From: a virus
DNA length: 26,415 nt
Direction: 5' to 3' (one strand)
Virus record (IMG/VR): IMGVR_UViG_3300037153_000245
Location: 1-26,415 of that record
In this document: piece after piece, positions 6,660-12,744 of the stretch
How the letters are laid out: each line of letters begins with the position of its first letter
Position numbering within the stretch: position 1 is the stretch's first letter
Program-made: the position numbers and the translations under genes
The notes under the pieces: generated by a model
Seen by the model: only the letters and a program-made list of their open reading frames with translations
Database searches by the model: none
What the model was told of the DNA's origin: nothing

Positions 6660-7432
6660 GGCGTCACCTCCTCGCGGGCGGGCGGTTCCATGGGGTCGCC
6701 CACCCATTCGTCGCGCTGCTTGAAATCGTCCGCAGCCGTGGCCCACGCCGCCACCGGGATTGCGTGCAGGAACACGCGCCACTCCACCTCGGTGGCCTGC
6801 ATGGGGCGCAGCTCGTAGGTCCCGTCCAGCCGCAGGTGGACGCAGCCGCAAGCGTCCACGCGGGGCACCGGCACCTCCACCCCGTCGCCCTGTAGCACCA
6901 CCTCGGCGTAGCGCGCCGCGGCGAGCTGTAGGGCGTACTCGGGGCGAATCGTCGTGCCCGTTTTCCAATCCAACAGCCACCGCTTGCCGTCGGCCAGGTC
7001 CGCAATCAGGTCGGGCGTGCCCGCGTAGCGCCAGCGACGTGAGAACACGGGGCGCTCCACCAGCAGCTCGCGCGGCTGCCACTCCTCGACAAACCGCAGG
7101 TAAGCGTCCACCAGCCCCACGTACGGCTCGGGCACGTCCACCTCGACGCCAGCCGCCAGCTGCTCCAGCCCCTTGTGCACCGCGGTGCCACGTCGTGAGG
7201 CCTCGGTGAAAACCTCGCGGTGCGCGTAGGCCACCAGCTTGCGCCGCTCGGTCGGTTCCAGGTCCTGCAATTCGTCCCAGCGGTTCACCACCACGTCGCC
7301 GGCCTCGTTAGCCGCCCATTGCGTTAGGCCCGGCTTGGCAATTCCGCGCAGCACGGTCGTTATGCCCGGCACCTTTTCGCCGTCGATTCGGTACGAATGG
7401 CCGCGCCCGTGCTCGCGCCGCTCCAGCGTCAC
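6656..7432 (-). CDS. PD-(D/E)XK exonuclease, RecB/Cas4-like, 258 aa
   Basis: The nuclease signature is clear: RGTAVHKG (His at 86), E126, YAGTPDLIAD with D141, LLDWKTGT with D155 and K157, and YALQLAAARYAE with the motif QxxxY (Q169). This is the RecB/Cas4 nuclease fold, which resects double-stranded ends to give single strands for RecT. The length is typical for phage members. The GTG at 7432 overlaps the zinc-finger gene stop (GTGA). It forms a recombination module with RecT and RusA. No obvious iron-sulphur cysteine set is seen, so it resembles simple phage exonucleases more than Cas4. Confidence 0.9.
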   Translation of the reverse strand: MTLERREHGRGHSYRIDGEKVPGITTVLRGIAKPGLTQWAANEAGDVVVNRWDELQDLEPTERRKLVAYAHREVFTEASRRGTAVHKGLEQLAAGVEVDVPEPYVGLVDAYLRFVEEWQPRELLVERPVFSRRWRYAGTPDLIADLADGKRWLLDWKTGTTIRPEYALQLAAARYAEVVLQGDGVEVPVPRVDACGCVHLRLDGTYELRPMQATEVEWRVFLHAIPVAAWATAADDFKQRDEWVGDPMEPPAREEVTP

Positions 7433-7836
7433 CCCAGCACCTCGCCCACGTATTCGGGGTGCTTGGTCGCCATGTGGTCGGCCAGCTGCTTGACCGTGCG
7501 GTGGCAGCACGGGCACACGCCCGCCGCGGTCCGACGCTTGGCGCGCGTCAGGTGACCACGGGTGGCAGCGTGCGACCGTTCCTCGGCACGCAGCAGGTCA
7601 TGGGCGGCGGCGCGCGAGCGGCGGGTGCTGGCCAGCTCGCGCTCCAGCTGCGCGGTCCTGCTTTCGCCCGCAAACGTCCACGGGTGCCCGAGCGGGCAAT
7701 AAATCGACCGCTGCGCCCTGCCGTCCTCGTGCTGGCGGTGCACGAGGTCGTACAGCTCCTCCGGCACCGCGTGGCGAATCCCGCACCAGCACGTCGTTAC
7801 GACCAGCTGGCCGGTGTAGCTCAGCGGCACGACCAC
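7429..7836 (-). CDS. Zinc-finger protein with central coiled coil, 135 aa
   Basis: The N-terminal part contains TTCWCGIRHAVPEELYD and later IYCPLGHPW, a spaced Cys/His set that can bind zinc. The middle (about 58-98) is a charged helix (SRTAQLERELASTRRSR onward). The C-terminus has CPCCHRTVKQLADHMATKHP, a C2H2-like finger. This arrangement recurs in small proteins of actinobacterial phages, usually annotated only as zinc-finger proteins, and is probably DNA-binding. The GTG at 7836 overlaps the transglycosylase gene by 16 bp, the only non-4-bp junction in this part of the chain. It directly precedes the exonuclease gene. Confidence 0.82.
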   Translation of the reverse strand: MVVPLSYTGQLVVTTCWCGIRHAVPEELYDLVHRQHEDGRAQRSIYCPLGHPWTFAGESRTAQLERELASTRRSRAAAHDLLRAEERSHAATRGHLTRAKRRTAAGVCPCCHRTVKQLADHMATKHPEYVGEVLG

Positions 7837-10398: not shown

Positions 10399-10532
10399 CG
10401 GTCAGGCCCAACCTCGACGTGGAAATGCTCGGGGTGCAGCTGCTCGGCTATCCACGCCTGCGCCTCGTCCACGTTGTCGAACGGGCGCGGCACCAGCAAC
10501 CCGCTGTGGTGGTTGCGCACACGCACGGTCAC
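10395..10532 (-). CDS. Unknown small protein, 45 aa
   Basis: This short gene fills the space between two others exactly: its GTG at 10532 overlaps the previous stop and its TGA at 10395 overlaps the next GTG, both as GTGA. The product (TVRVRNHHSGLLVPRPFD, then VDEAQAWIAEQLHPEHFHVE) reads as strand-helix-strand with four His and strong third-position G/C bias. No family is recognised. Confidence 0.72.
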   Translation of the reverse strand: MTVRVRNHHSGLLVPRPFDNVDEAQAWIAEQLHPEHFHVEVGPDR

Positions 10533-10813
10533 CGGTCCGCCCGCCTGCTCGCTAGCGCCTCGTGCTCGCGCTCACGCAGCGCCGCCCGCAGCTGGAGCGA
10601 CCGCTGGGCCAGGTCGTTGGCCTGCGCCCGACAGCACGCCGCCAGCGCACGCGCGGCGCTGCCCAGCGCCTTGTCCTCGGGGAATTCGTCGGCCAGCTCG
10701 TCCAGCGACGTCAGGAACAGGTCGAGCGATTGCAGCCGGGCCTCGGTGTATGCGGCCTCGGTCGCGCGCCAATCGTCGGCGCGCACCATCGGGCGCACGT
10801 TGTCAATGCCCAC
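10529..10813 (-). CDS. Unknown helical protein, 94 aa, first gene of the leftward early chain
   Basis: The start is the GTG at 10813 because GGAGG lies 5 nt upstream; a frame open to 10930 would run through the GGGACCAC repeats of the attP region. The protein is a long charged helical bundle (EAAYTEARLQSLDLFLTSLD, then ALAACCRAQANDLAQRSLQL and a basic end). It has no known motif. Its promoter would lie in 10814-10980, overlapping the left arm repeats. That placement could let integrase or another binder of these repeats affect early transcription. Confidence 0.75.
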   Translation of the reverse strand: MGIDNVRPMVRADDWRATEAAYTEARLQSLDLFLTSLDELADEFPEDKALGSAARALAACCRAQANDLAQRSLQLRAALREREHEALASRRADR

Positions 10814-10837: not shown

Positions 10838-10856
10838 GGGACCACGTGGGGACCAC
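10838..10856 (+). repeat. Left pair of integrase arm-type-like repeats (GGGACCAC twice, 11-bp period)
   Basis: GGGACCAC occurs at 10838-10845 and again at 10849-10856, exactly one 11-bp step apart. The same tandem arrangement recurs at 11071-11089 on the other side of the tRNA-like core. Tandem direct sites on both sides of an attP core are how tyrosine integrases bind with their N-terminal domain. Assignment to integrase is inference. Confidence 0.6.
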
Positions 10857-10980
10857 GGGGGCGTTATTTGGGGGTGGTGCAGCGTGTTGCAGCCGGGGGC
10901 ACGTCGGGGCGGCGATGGGGCGCAACGCACGCAACCATGCGCGCTGCGCCCCCGCCAGCACCTAACAGCCCCACCTAGCT

Positions 10981-11018
10981 ACATACGGGCGGTGCTGGTT
11001 CGATCCCAGCCGCGCCCA
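10981..11018 (+). other. attP: Probable attP core: 3' half of a tRNA gene
   Basis: GCTGG (10994-10998), loop TTCGATC (10999-11005) and CCAGC (11006-11010) form a perfect tRNA T arm. CGCGCCC (11011-11017) plus A (11018) is an acceptor 3' strand and discriminator base. Upstream, ACGGG and a 4-nt CGGT fit the 3' anticodon stem and variable loop, but there is no 5' half, D arm or matching anticodon stem. This is the usual form of a phage attP that rebuilds a host tRNA on integration. It lies 78 bp from the integrase stop. Host tRNA identity is not certain; a GGGCGCG acceptor is implied. Confidence 0.82.
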
Positions 11019-11070
11019 TAGCCCCAAACGACGCAGCCATGCGCCGTGGGGCAAACCGGGCCGGTCTAGC

Positions 11071-11089
11071 GGGACCAGCTCGGGACCAC
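11071..11089 (+). repeat. Right pair of integrase arm-type-like repeats (GGGACCA twice, 11-bp period)
   Basis: GGGACCAG (11071-11078) and GGGACCAC (11082-11089) repeat the left pair in orientation, spacing and flanks (GCGGGACCA before, GGGACCACGG in the second unit). The pair ends 7 bp before the integrase stop region. With the left pair it brackets the tRNA-like core asymmetrically (about 125 bp on the left, 53 bp on the right). Confidence 0.6.
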
Positions 11090-11095
11090 GGAGGG

Positions 11096-12340
11096 TCATT
11101 TAGCCTCCGTGTGGGCGTCGGTGAGCGCGTGTTGGGTAGCAGCTACGCGCGCCGCCGACGCCCTCAATCCGTCGGTGGTCGCTGCTGCCATTCCACGCGC
11201 CACGCGCGCCGCGCGGTCGCCCTGGTCGTACACGCCGTCCAGCAGGGTCGTGTCGGCGTGGCCCAAGCGGTCGGCTGCGTCGTCCTTGGACAGCCCAGCG
11301 TCCCGCATGAGGGTGGCCGCGGTCGAGCGTAGGTCGTGCGGCTTGAGGTCGTCAAACGGCGTGGGCGCGTCGTCGGCCAGCTCGTGCTCGACGCGCCACG
11401 CGGTCGCTGCGCGCTCGGTGGCCTTGCTCCACACCAGCTTGTGGAAATGGGGGCGCGCGGTGCTCCACGCGCCCCCTTGCGCCTTGGGGAACACGAGCGA
11501 CGACCCGGCGGCACGTGAAGGTAGGTGCCCGGTTTTGCTCGTCTCGTCCACCACGCGCAATGCGCCCAGCTGTTCGCGCAGCAGCGTGACCTCCTCGGGC
11601 CACAGCGGAATGACCTTGGCCCGTCGTTCCTTGCACAGCTCGGCGGGCACGTACACCGTGGCGCCCTCCAGGTCCACGCGGTCGTCGGTCAGGGCGAACG
11701 CCTCGCCGGGACGCAGCCCCGTGGTGCCCATAAACAGGACGAGCCGCTGCGCGTAGTCGGGCGCGTGCGTGGCCAGGTACTCCAGCTCCAGCGCGGTGAG
11801 CGCCCGGCGCTGGCGCGGCTCGACCACCACGGCCTCGACGCCCAGCAGCGCCAGGTCGTAACGCGCGCCGCGGTCGCCCGCGTAGCGCAGCACCGCCTTG
11901 AACGACTCCAGCGCGTTGCGCGCGGTGGTCGGGTGCTCCAGCGACAGCTCCAGCACGGCGTCCTCCACGACGTCGCGGCGCAGCATGGACAGGCGCGTGC
12001 TGGCCAGCGGTCCCTCGCGCCACACGCGGGTGGCGACGTCCCAATGCTTTATGCCGTTGGCGGACAGGCGCCGCTTGGTTTTGCGCGACACGGCGGTGCG
12101 CTTGCGCGCCAGCAGCGACTCCACCGCCTCCCGCAGCGTGGGGTCGCCCTGGGCCTGGGTCGGCGCCAGCCCAGCAGCTCGACGCTGGCGCAGCTCAATG
12201 GCTCGGGCGTTGGCGGTGTCGGCGTCCTTGTGGACCTCGACGTGGCGACCGTAGGGCGCTGGGAACATGACGCGCACGCGGAACGAGTCGCGGTGGCGCT
12301 GGACACCCTCCAGCAGGGTTGGGGTCGTGGTAGCGGCCAC
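11096..12340 (-). CDS. int: Tyrosine recombinase phage integrase, 414 aa
   Basis: The catalytic set of the tyrosine recombinases is present: R210 in TTGLRPGEA, a Lys near 242 (RRAKVIPLW), H335 and R338 in KPHDLRSTAATLMRDAG, H361 in RLGHADT and nucleophile Y371 in DGVYDQ. The N-terminal part (about 1-60) fits an arm-binding domain and 60-160 a core-binding SAM-like domain. I choose the GTG at 12340 because GGAGG lies 5 nt upstream; the ATG at 12379 adds 13 residues with a poorer site. It follows a small excisionase-like gene by 45 bp and is itself followed by the tRNA-like attP, so the integration module is complete. It makes the phage temperate. Confidence 0.95.
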   Translation of the reverse strand: MAATTTPTLLEGVQRHRDSFRVRVMFPAPYGRHVEVHKDADTANARAIELRQRRAAGLAPTQAQGDPTLREAVESLLARKRTAVSRKTKRRLSANGIKHWDVATRVWREGPLASTRLSMLRRDVVEDAVLELSLEHPTTARNALESFKAVLRYAGDRGARYDLALLGVEAVVVEPRQRRALTALELEYLATHAPDYAQRLVLFMGTTGLRPGEAFALTDDRVDLEGATVYVPAELCKERRAKVIPLWPEEVTLLREQLGALRVVDETSKTGHLPSRAAGSSLVFPKAQGGAWSTARPHFHKLVWSKATERAATAWRVEHELADDAPTPFDDLKPHDLRSTAATLMRDAGLSKDDAADRLGHADTTLLDGVYDQGDRAARVARGMAAATTDGLRASAARVAATQHALTDAHTEAK

Positions 12341-12385: not shown

Positions 12386-12568
12386 CTAGCCCCCGTCCCT
12401 CCGTTGGCGCATATGGGCCACCCACCGCTCGACGTCGCGCTGCGAATAACGGGGGCGACCACGCACCAGCACCTGCGCCAGGTGGCCGTCTCGGACCTCC
12501 CGCCGCACCGTCCAGCGCGACACCTTGGCCAGCTCGCAAACCTGCGCCTGCGTTAGCAGCTCGGTCAT
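12386..12568 (-). CDS. xis: Excisionase-like helix-turn-helix protein, 60 aa
   Basis: The protein is a single MerR/HTH_17-like DNA-binding domain: LLTQAQVCELAKVSRWTVRR is the helix-turn-helix, followed by a wing (GHLAQVLVRGRPRYSQRDVE) and a short C-terminal helix. Proteins of this size directly before an integrase usually act as excisionases that bend attP or attR DNA and set recombination direction. I start at the ATG at 12568; a frame open to 12724 has no HTH-related content upstream and weak bias. A small regulator role is the main alternative. Confidence 0.85.
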   Translation of the reverse strand: MTELLTQAQVCELAKVSRWTVRREVRDGHLAQVLVRGRPRYSQRDVERWVAHMRQRRDGG

Positions 12569-12744
12569 GGAGCTGGTGGTGTAAGCGAGCACGAGCCGCA
12601 GCGCAAACAGCCAGCACACGCCGGGTTTTCGTGTTGCAGCGGGGTGCACACCGTTGCCGCGCGTTGCAGCTCGCCAAACCTGCCGCAGCCGCAAATTGCG
12701 AGAAAAACGCACCTGCACCCCCAAGCGGCTGGGCGGGACGCTAC
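12569..12744 (-). promoter_or_regulatory. 176-bp intergenic region before excisionase-integrase, with short repeats
   Basis: The region separates the lysis genes from the integration genes. It holds CGTGTTGCAGC at 12630-12640, a related GCGTTGCAGC at 12661-12670 and an inverted repeat CGCAAATTGCG at 12690-12700 next to a short A/T run. CGTGTTGCAGC also occurs at 10883-10893, beside the attP left arm. These could be operator or excisionase sites and a promoter for xis-int. No clear -35/-10 boxes are seen. Confidence 0.4.

What the first reader, a model, noticed from the sequence alone, without database searches (positions are those of the whole stretch)
10838..11089. attP with tRNA 3' half bracketed by two matched pairs of 11-bp-phased GGGACCA repeats
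The sequence shows a perfect T arm and acceptor end of a tRNA (10981-11018) 78 bp from the integrase stop, and the tandem pair GGGACCAC-3 bp-GGGACCAC at 10838-10856 recurs as GGGACCAG-3 bp-GGGACCAC at 11071-11089. Both pairs have the same orientation and exact 11-bp period, one on each side of the core. Tyrosine integrases of the lambda type are known to use paired direct arm sites on both sides of the core, so this probably gives the complete attP and an arm consensus for this integrase. The left pair also lies just upstream of the leftward early chain, which could link integrase binding to transcription.
Basis: partly seen in the sequence, partly recalled or inferred. Interest (0 to 1): 0.75.

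Follow-up and report, generated by a model that had tools for sequence, protein, structure and literature searches.

The report
Phage attachment site with paired integrase arms
This is the spot where an uncultured temperate phage inserts itself into the end of its host's valine-tRNA gene; the two matched repeat pairs are almost certainly where its integrase grips the DNA, at spacings shared by many unrelated phages.

Summary
The repeats are real: GGGACCA-N4-GGGACCA at 10838 and 11071, 233 bp apart, same orientation; 0 of 300 shuffles gave any such double pair. The attP reading is well supported. A contig with a 69%-identical integrase keeps both pairs, the exact 233-bp spacing and the tRNA fragment in otherwise diverged DNA. 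Five chromosomal relatives in Thermoleophilia abut tRNA 3' ends (tRNA-Val in four). Each has one 11-bp-phased pair 82-85 bp from the T-loop (85 in the window), with sequence differing between integrases. One is a complete 7.3-kb integrated element with a 26-bp T-arm/acceptor core and arm pairs on both sides.

Corrections: the host-identical core is about 25 bp (10994-11018), not 38; the target is tRNA-Val. Additions: TGCA-N6-TGCA occurs only twice in the window, in the attP long arm and before the HTH_17 gene next to int, suggesting an autoregulated excisionase. A TGGTNCC search found 31 further attP-like loci; in every one all four sites share the fifth base. Without assuming a motif, 11-bp-phased pairs are enriched beside tRNA-linked integrases. 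New member of a known kind; binding, crossover and host are untested experimentally.

The parts
10838..10856 (+). Distal (long-arm) pair of arm-type sites, GGGACCAC-GTG-GGGACCAC (TGGTCCC on the int-coding strand); centre about 155 bp from the T-loop
   Evidence: Exact match; same offset in L002; 0/300 shuffles
11071..11089 (+). Proximal (short-arm) pair of arm-type sites, GGGACCAG-CTC-GGGACCAC; centre about 78 bp from the T-loop
   Evidence: Exact match; first site to T-loop 85 bp as in L002, L008, G660, G488
10994..11018 (+). Core shared with host tRNA-Val genes: T-stem, T-loop, 3' acceptor strand and discriminator A, no CCA
   Evidence: Genome matches; same extent as the 26-bp direct repeat that flanks the G488 element
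10999..11005 (+). T-loop TTCGATC between the inverted T-stem halves GCTGG/CCAGC: likely overlap region (inferred)
   Evidence: Sequence; L002 keeps GGTTCGATCCCAGCCGCGCCCATAG but not the 5' T-stem half
10878..10891 (.). TGCA-N6-TGCA in the long arm: putative excisionase (RDF) sites
   Evidence: Only two 10-bp-spaced TGCA pairs in the window, here and at 12635; same places in L002
12635..12648 (.). Second TGCA-N6-TGCA, upstream of the HTH_17 gene: putative RDF operator
   Evidence: equivalents in L002 (5617) and, with another word, L005 (3201)
11096..12340 (-). Tyrosine integrase (GTG start after GGAGGT assumed; the open frame runs to 12379)
   Evidence: Pfam Phage_integrase E 7e-14; N-terminal three-strand-plus-helix domain; Foldseek to Tn1549 Int and lambda Int
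12386..12568 (-). HTH_17 protein of 60 aa, candidate excisionase (RDF)
   Evidence: Pfam HTH_17 E 1e-7; best PHROG is excisionase and transcriptional regulator; L002, L005 and L008 have a similar small protein directly upstream of int
10529..10813 (-). First gene of the leftward chain; GTG start and GGAGG about 15 bp from the distal pair
   Evidence: Open frame and sequence; L002 has a similarly placed gene after its distal pair

Best explanation
The region 10838-11089 is the attP of a temperate phage and works like lambda attP. The C-terminal part of the adjacent tyrosine integrase recombines the 25-bp core at 10994-11018 with the T-arm end of host tRNA-Val, and the phage-supplied end restores the tRNA. 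The N-terminal domain of the integrase holds two tandem pairs of arm sites (TGGTCCC, 11-bp period), one about 78 bp from the T-loop on the int side and one about 155 bp away on the other side. The small HTH_17 protein encoded just upstream of int is the likely excisionase and probably binds 10-bp-phased TGCA sites in the long arm and before its own gene. Shown by sequence comparison: anatomy, conservation, tRNA-Val as target of relatives, and one complete integrated relative with the same anatomy. Inferred: protein binding, exact crossover, RDF role and autoregulation, and Thermoleophilia as the host of this phage.
For: Double pair beyond chance. Pairs and exact 233-bp spacing kept in L002 while the DNA between diverged. 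Same double pairs beside integrases in L004-L008. Core is the end of tRNA-Val. Five chromosomal relatives of the integrase abut a tRNA 3' end, tRNA-Val in four, each with an 11-bp-phased pair 82-85 bp from the T-loop whose sequence differs between integrases. G488 is a complete integrated element with a 26-bp core repeat and arm pairs at both ends. Arm-binding fold of the N-terminal domain. RDF candidate and its sites. Experimentally required arm sites of ICEMlSymR7A, TGKTGGTATC, are similar (PMC11963761).
Against: No lysogen of this phage or of L002 was found. Arm binding is untested. The distal pair of G488 has one mismatch and lies about 145, not 155, bp away. L005 has the arms and the integrase but no recognisable tRNA end at the core. 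The structure model is of moderate confidence (mean pLDDT 70).
Confidence: 0.93

Rival explanations
1. The GGGACCA pairs are operators of a phage repressor or early regulator that happen to lie around attP.
For: The left pair lies just upstream of the first leftward gene; many actinophages carry dispersed repressor sites (general knowledge).
Against: No third exact pair in the window. Both pairs keep base-exact positions relative to the tRNA core in L002 and L008. The short-arm pair is also present at chromosomal attL sites, where its sequence differs with the integrase.
Confidence: 0.04
2. The pairs bind the excisionase (RDF) or a host protein rather than the integrase.
For: RDFs also bind tandem phased sites on att DNA; the HTH_17 gene is adjacent.
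Against: A separate 10-bp-phased TGCA element in the long arm recurs before the HTH_17 gene and fits the RDF better. Pairs on both sides of the core are the known layout of integrase arm sites. The bases differ between integrases and are coherent within each attP, which does not fit a host protein.
Confidence: 0.03
3. Chance repeats in a GC-rich phage genome.
For: Single GGGACCAC-like words are only mildly more common than chance (54 against 42 expected with one mismatch).
Against: 0 of 300 shuffles gave a double pair; exact conservation of the spacing in other phages.
Confidence: 0.005

Closest known systems
Mycobacteriophage cluster J (Omega) integration cassette (PMC3706429)
   Same: attP 3' of a tyrosine integrase, core in a tRNA gene about 100 bp from the int end, two pairs of direct arm sites flanking the core, small HTH genes upstream of int suggested as RDF.
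   Different: Arm consensus TGCATAC, core in tRNA-Leu, inverted arm-like sites at the int start; W has TGGTCCC arms and a tRNA-Val core.
Mycobacteriophage cluster K, with L5 and Giles as cited there (PMC3203893)
   Same: Pairs of putative arm sites flanking the core; one arm base differs between close relatives together with N-terminal residues of the integrase.
   Different: In CrimD the second pair is inverted; in W both pairs are direct. The consensus is shown only in a figure and was not compared.
ICEMlSymR7A attP/IntS (PMC11963761)
   Same: Arm consensus TGKTGGTATC contains TGGTATC, close to TGGTNCC; 283-bp attP; five arm sites required for efficient integration; RDF also acts on its own promoter.
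   Different: Proteobacterial ICE, five sites, RDF gene not next to int.
Bacteriophage lambda attP and Int
   Same: Bivalent integrase with an arm-binding domain, attP of about 240 bp with one short and one long arm, excisionase sites in the long arm (general knowledge; fold match).
   Different: Different arm sequence and number of sites; the lambda core is not in a tRNA gene; IHF sites were not identified here.

Membership tests
Arm-binding-domain tyrosine integrases (lambda type) | Catalytic domain with R, K, H-x-x-R, H and Y residues | tested here: met
   Pfam Phage_integrase; R212, K239, H337-x-x-R340, H363 and Y373 invariant in the four-sequence family; assignment as catalytic residues by motif
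Arm-binding-domain tyrosine integrases (lambda type) | N-terminal arm-binding domain of three strands and a helix | tested here: met
   Strands 15-18, 21-27, 34-39 and helix 42-58 at pLDDT 84-89; alignment to full-length lambda Int; no Pfam hit to an arm domain
Arm-binding-domain tyrosine integrases (lambda type) | attP core identical to a host site | tested here: met
   25-bp end of tRNA-Val; relatives abut tRNA-Val
Arm-binding-domain tyrosine integrases (lambda type) | Arm sites on both sides of the core in attP | tested here: met
   Two pairs, conserved in L002, L005 and L008
Arm-binding-domain tyrosine integrases (lambda type) | Integrase N-terminal domain binds the arm sites | not testable with these tools
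   Needs purified protein
Arm-binding-domain tyrosine integrases (lambda type) | Excisionase with sites in one arm | tested here: inconclusive
   HTH_17 gene and 10-bp-phased TGCA sites fit; binding not shown
Arm-binding-domain tyrosine integrases (lambda type) | DNA-bending host factor (IHF-like) sites | not tested
   Actinobacterial IHF has no clear consensus (general knowledge)
Cluster J mycobacteriophage arm-site type | Arm consensus TGCATAC (g/t) Pu Py | tested here: not met
   W pairs are TGGTCCC

The most novel reading that the evidence does not exclude
Arm sites of many arm-domain integrases follow a shared grammar: tandem 11-bp pairs that mostly begin with TGG, with variable following bases that are coherent within one attP and differ between integrases, placed at distances of about 77, 87 or 98 bp (one helical turn apart) on the 3' side of a tRNA T-loop, with a second pair on the long arm. 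attP and target tRNA could then be read from sequence, and the arm recognition code solved from natural variation.
Probability: 0.55. Interest if true: 0.65.

Novelty: new member of a known kind. Interest (0 to 1): 0.48.

Why it matters
Arm-type sites have been worked out for few integrases, usually one phage at a time. Here the same pair geometry, with coherent variation of the recognition bases, recurs across contigs of very different composition and integrase type. That makes attP and target prediction, the arm-recognition code and the RDF operator directly testable for uncultured phages. For this phage it defines an attP-int cassette that is a candidate integration tool for Thermoleophilia, for which I know of none.

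Tried and rejected
1) BLASTn of the region against phage records: no match. 3) GTDB scan with integrase peptide patterns: no relative; the more sensitive search of Thermoleophilia genomes then worked. 4) Controls: inverted arrangement of the pairs 0 hits; scrambled motif TGCTNGC 5 hits, all GCTAGC repeat clusters without integrase. 5) L120 rejected as a 30-bp tandem repeat. 6) Single TGGTCCC pairs in 395 Actinomycetes genomes: about 66 against 36 for the backward control (my count), and only a minority lie next to integrases or tRNAs, so a single pair is weak evidence. 7) A residue-to-base code across all integrases could not be read from the alignment. Within the W family only the TGGTCCC users carry an FPAPxGR stretch between strands 2 and 3; this could be common descent alone. 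8) No paper naming TGGTCCC or TGGTACC as arm sites was found, in an open-licence library only.

Full report
Observation. They are the only exact GGGACCA-N4-GGGACCA pairs in the window and lie 233 bp apart in the same orientation. In 300 dinucleotide-preserving shuffles no 7-mer formed such a double pair. The tRNA fragment ends 78 bp from the integrase stop.

The gene set. The window (W) is a 26,415-base linear virus record. Portal, major head, tape-measure and tail genes, an amidase, the integrase, RecT and exonuclease genes and a DNA methylase are recognisable. The integrase (11096-12340) has a Phage_integrase domain. Its model shows a three-strand-plus-helix N-terminal domain, and Foldseek aligns the whole to lambda Int and its catalytic part to Tn1549 Int. 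Directly upstream lies a 60-aa HTH_17 protein whose best PHROG is excisionase and transcriptional regulator.

Close relative. L002 carries a 69%-identical integrase. Its attP has the same two pairs, exactly 233 bp apart, and the shared stretch CTATGGGCGCGGCTGGGATCGAACC at the same offset, while most other positions differ. Conserved sites at fixed spacing in diverged DNA are what an att site should look like.

Other viral contigs. A search of IMG/VR for two TGGTCCC pairs with 200-230 bp between them gave six contigs, one of them the L002 contig. All have a tyrosine integrase nearby. L002, L005 and L008 are 69, 40 and 44% identical to the W integrase; L004, L006 and L007 are only remotely related. 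Relaxing the motif to TGGTNCC and the gap to 169-261 gave 31 loci besides W, after removing one tandem repeat. In all 32 loci the four sites share the same base at position 5 (C, G, T or A), although the search did not ask for it. An integrase was found in 26 of the 32 loci, within 650 bp of the site in 25; in two more it lies farther off, and four loci, some of them short, show none. In 18 loci a tRNA T-loop lies 72.5-77.5 bp from one pair, on the tRNA 3' side (17, which accepted 68-82 bp, and L006). L138 and L141 have it at about 97 and 94 bp. The long arm varies from 126 to 175 bp. Some contigs are near duplicates (L122/L128, L123/L124, L130/L131, and the group L135/L137/L139/L140), so the independent number is lower. 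Controls: inverted pairs none; scrambled motif only GCTAGC clusters without integrase. By design this search finds only TGGTNCC; it does not say how common the motif is.

Chromosomal relatives. Genomes of one class (centre G003, the genome holding L081, a Solirubrobacterales MAG) contain integrases related to that of W. The five best sit next to a tRNA gene with their stop codon facing its 3' end: tRNA-Val in four, tRNA-Glu in one. Each has one tandem direct repeat of 11-bp period between the catalytic end of int and the tRNA. The distance from first site to T-loop is 85 bp in W, L002, L008, G660 and G488, and 82-83 in L206, L207 and L208. The repeats read TGGTCCC (W, L002, L008), TGGTCAA (G660), TGGACG (G488), TGGTCA (L206, L207) and TGGAC (L208). 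The position is kept while the sequence differs between integrases, as expected of sites read by a diverging protein domain.

A complete integrated relative. In G488 the 26 bp CACTGGTTCGAGCCCAGTAGCGCCCA at the end of tRNA-Val recur 7.3 kb away beyond the integrase. The short-arm pair lies next to the tRNA gene, and a pair TGGACG/CGGACG lies about 145 bp from the T-loop at the far end. The 26-bp repeat runs from the T-stem to the discriminator base, the same extent as the part of the W core that matches host genes.

The W core. The last 22 nt of the tRNA fragment match 107 GTDB stretches exactly; 99 are called as tRNA-Val and most of the rest look like 3' ends without a 5' half. Identity extends upstream only to G10994, so the core is 25 bp. 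W has no CCA after the discriminator, which favours hosts that do not encode CCA. Actinobacterial hits are mostly of that kind, alphaproteobacterial ones encode CCA. Together with the chromosomal relatives this makes Thermoleophilia the likely hosts (inference). The portal protein matches actinophages best, at 34% identity or less.

Excisionase sites. W has 190 TGCA words but only two pairs of them at 10-bp spacing: 10878/10888 in the long arm and 12635/12645 upstream of the HTH_17 gene. In L002 all five such pairs are in the same two places. About 1.4 pairs would be expected in W by chance, so it is the location, repeated in L002, that carries weight. L005 uses another word (GCGCCAC), again 10-bp-phased in attP and upstream of its own small HTH gene; L008 shows no such pattern. 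A shared operator in the long arm and at the RDF gene suggests an excisionase that binds attP and regulates itself, as RdfS does (PMC11963761).

Motif-free check. In 41 loci from Thermoleophilia, Actinomycetes and Alphaproteobacteria with an integrase and a called tRNA, exact 7-mer repeats within about 400 bp on the tRNA 3' side were counted at spacings of 8-14 bp. The counts were 6, 12, 13, 46, 34, 6 and 2, overlapping words counted separately. The 11-bp hits lie mainly at about 77-80, 86-89 and 97-101 bp from the T-loop, roughly one helical turn apart. By my count 11-12 of 16 loci have TGG in the repeat (TGGGAAC, TGGGATG, TGGTCAC and others); four of these are the W relatives already described. 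The excess at 12 bp was not followed.

Known background. Paired arm sites flanking a tRNA core, with attP 3' of int and a small HTH RDF, are described for cluster J, and paired sites for cluster K mycobacteriophages (PMC3706429, PMC3203893). [quoted passage not shown] The window is therefore a new member of a known kind. What may be new is how far the geometry and the coherent variation of the arm bases extend.

Noticed in passing
window 10878-10891 and 12635-12648; L002 5617, 7371, 7430-7460; L005 728-826 and 3201-3218: 10-bp-phased repeats occur in the attP long arm and again before the small HTH gene upstream of int, with the same word inside one phage and different words between phages: a probable RDF operator.
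   Followed up: partly
L004-L008, L116-L141: In all loci found with TGGTNCC double pairs, the four sites share the same base at position 5, which looks like a specificity base of the integrase arm domain.
   Followed up: partly
L182-L195, L213, L222-L238: Tandem 11-bp repeats beside tRNA-linked integrases sit at about 77, 87 or 98 bp from the T-loop, roughly one helical turn apart.
   Followed up: no
L005 690-942 and L008 508-759: A terminator-like hairpin (AAAAGAGCCGC...GCGGCTCTTTT) lies inside both attP regions, between core and distal pair.
   Followed up: no
L009, L031, L039, L042, L055, L065, L082, L091: tRNA-Val 3' ends without a called tRNA; several look like far ends of other elements integrated in the same tRNA at the anticodon loop, others may be cut by a contig end.
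   Followed up: no
L154 1501-1603 and L175 1501-1604: Beside tRNA-Pro(GGG) in Actinomycetes, TGGTCCC pairs occur in opposite orientations on both sides of the gap before an integrase gene.
   Followed up: no
L002 7505-7511; L006 attP; L007 attP: Extra single arm-like sites: an inverted GGGACCA in L002 and L006 and a third tandem TGGTCCC in L007.
   Followed up: no
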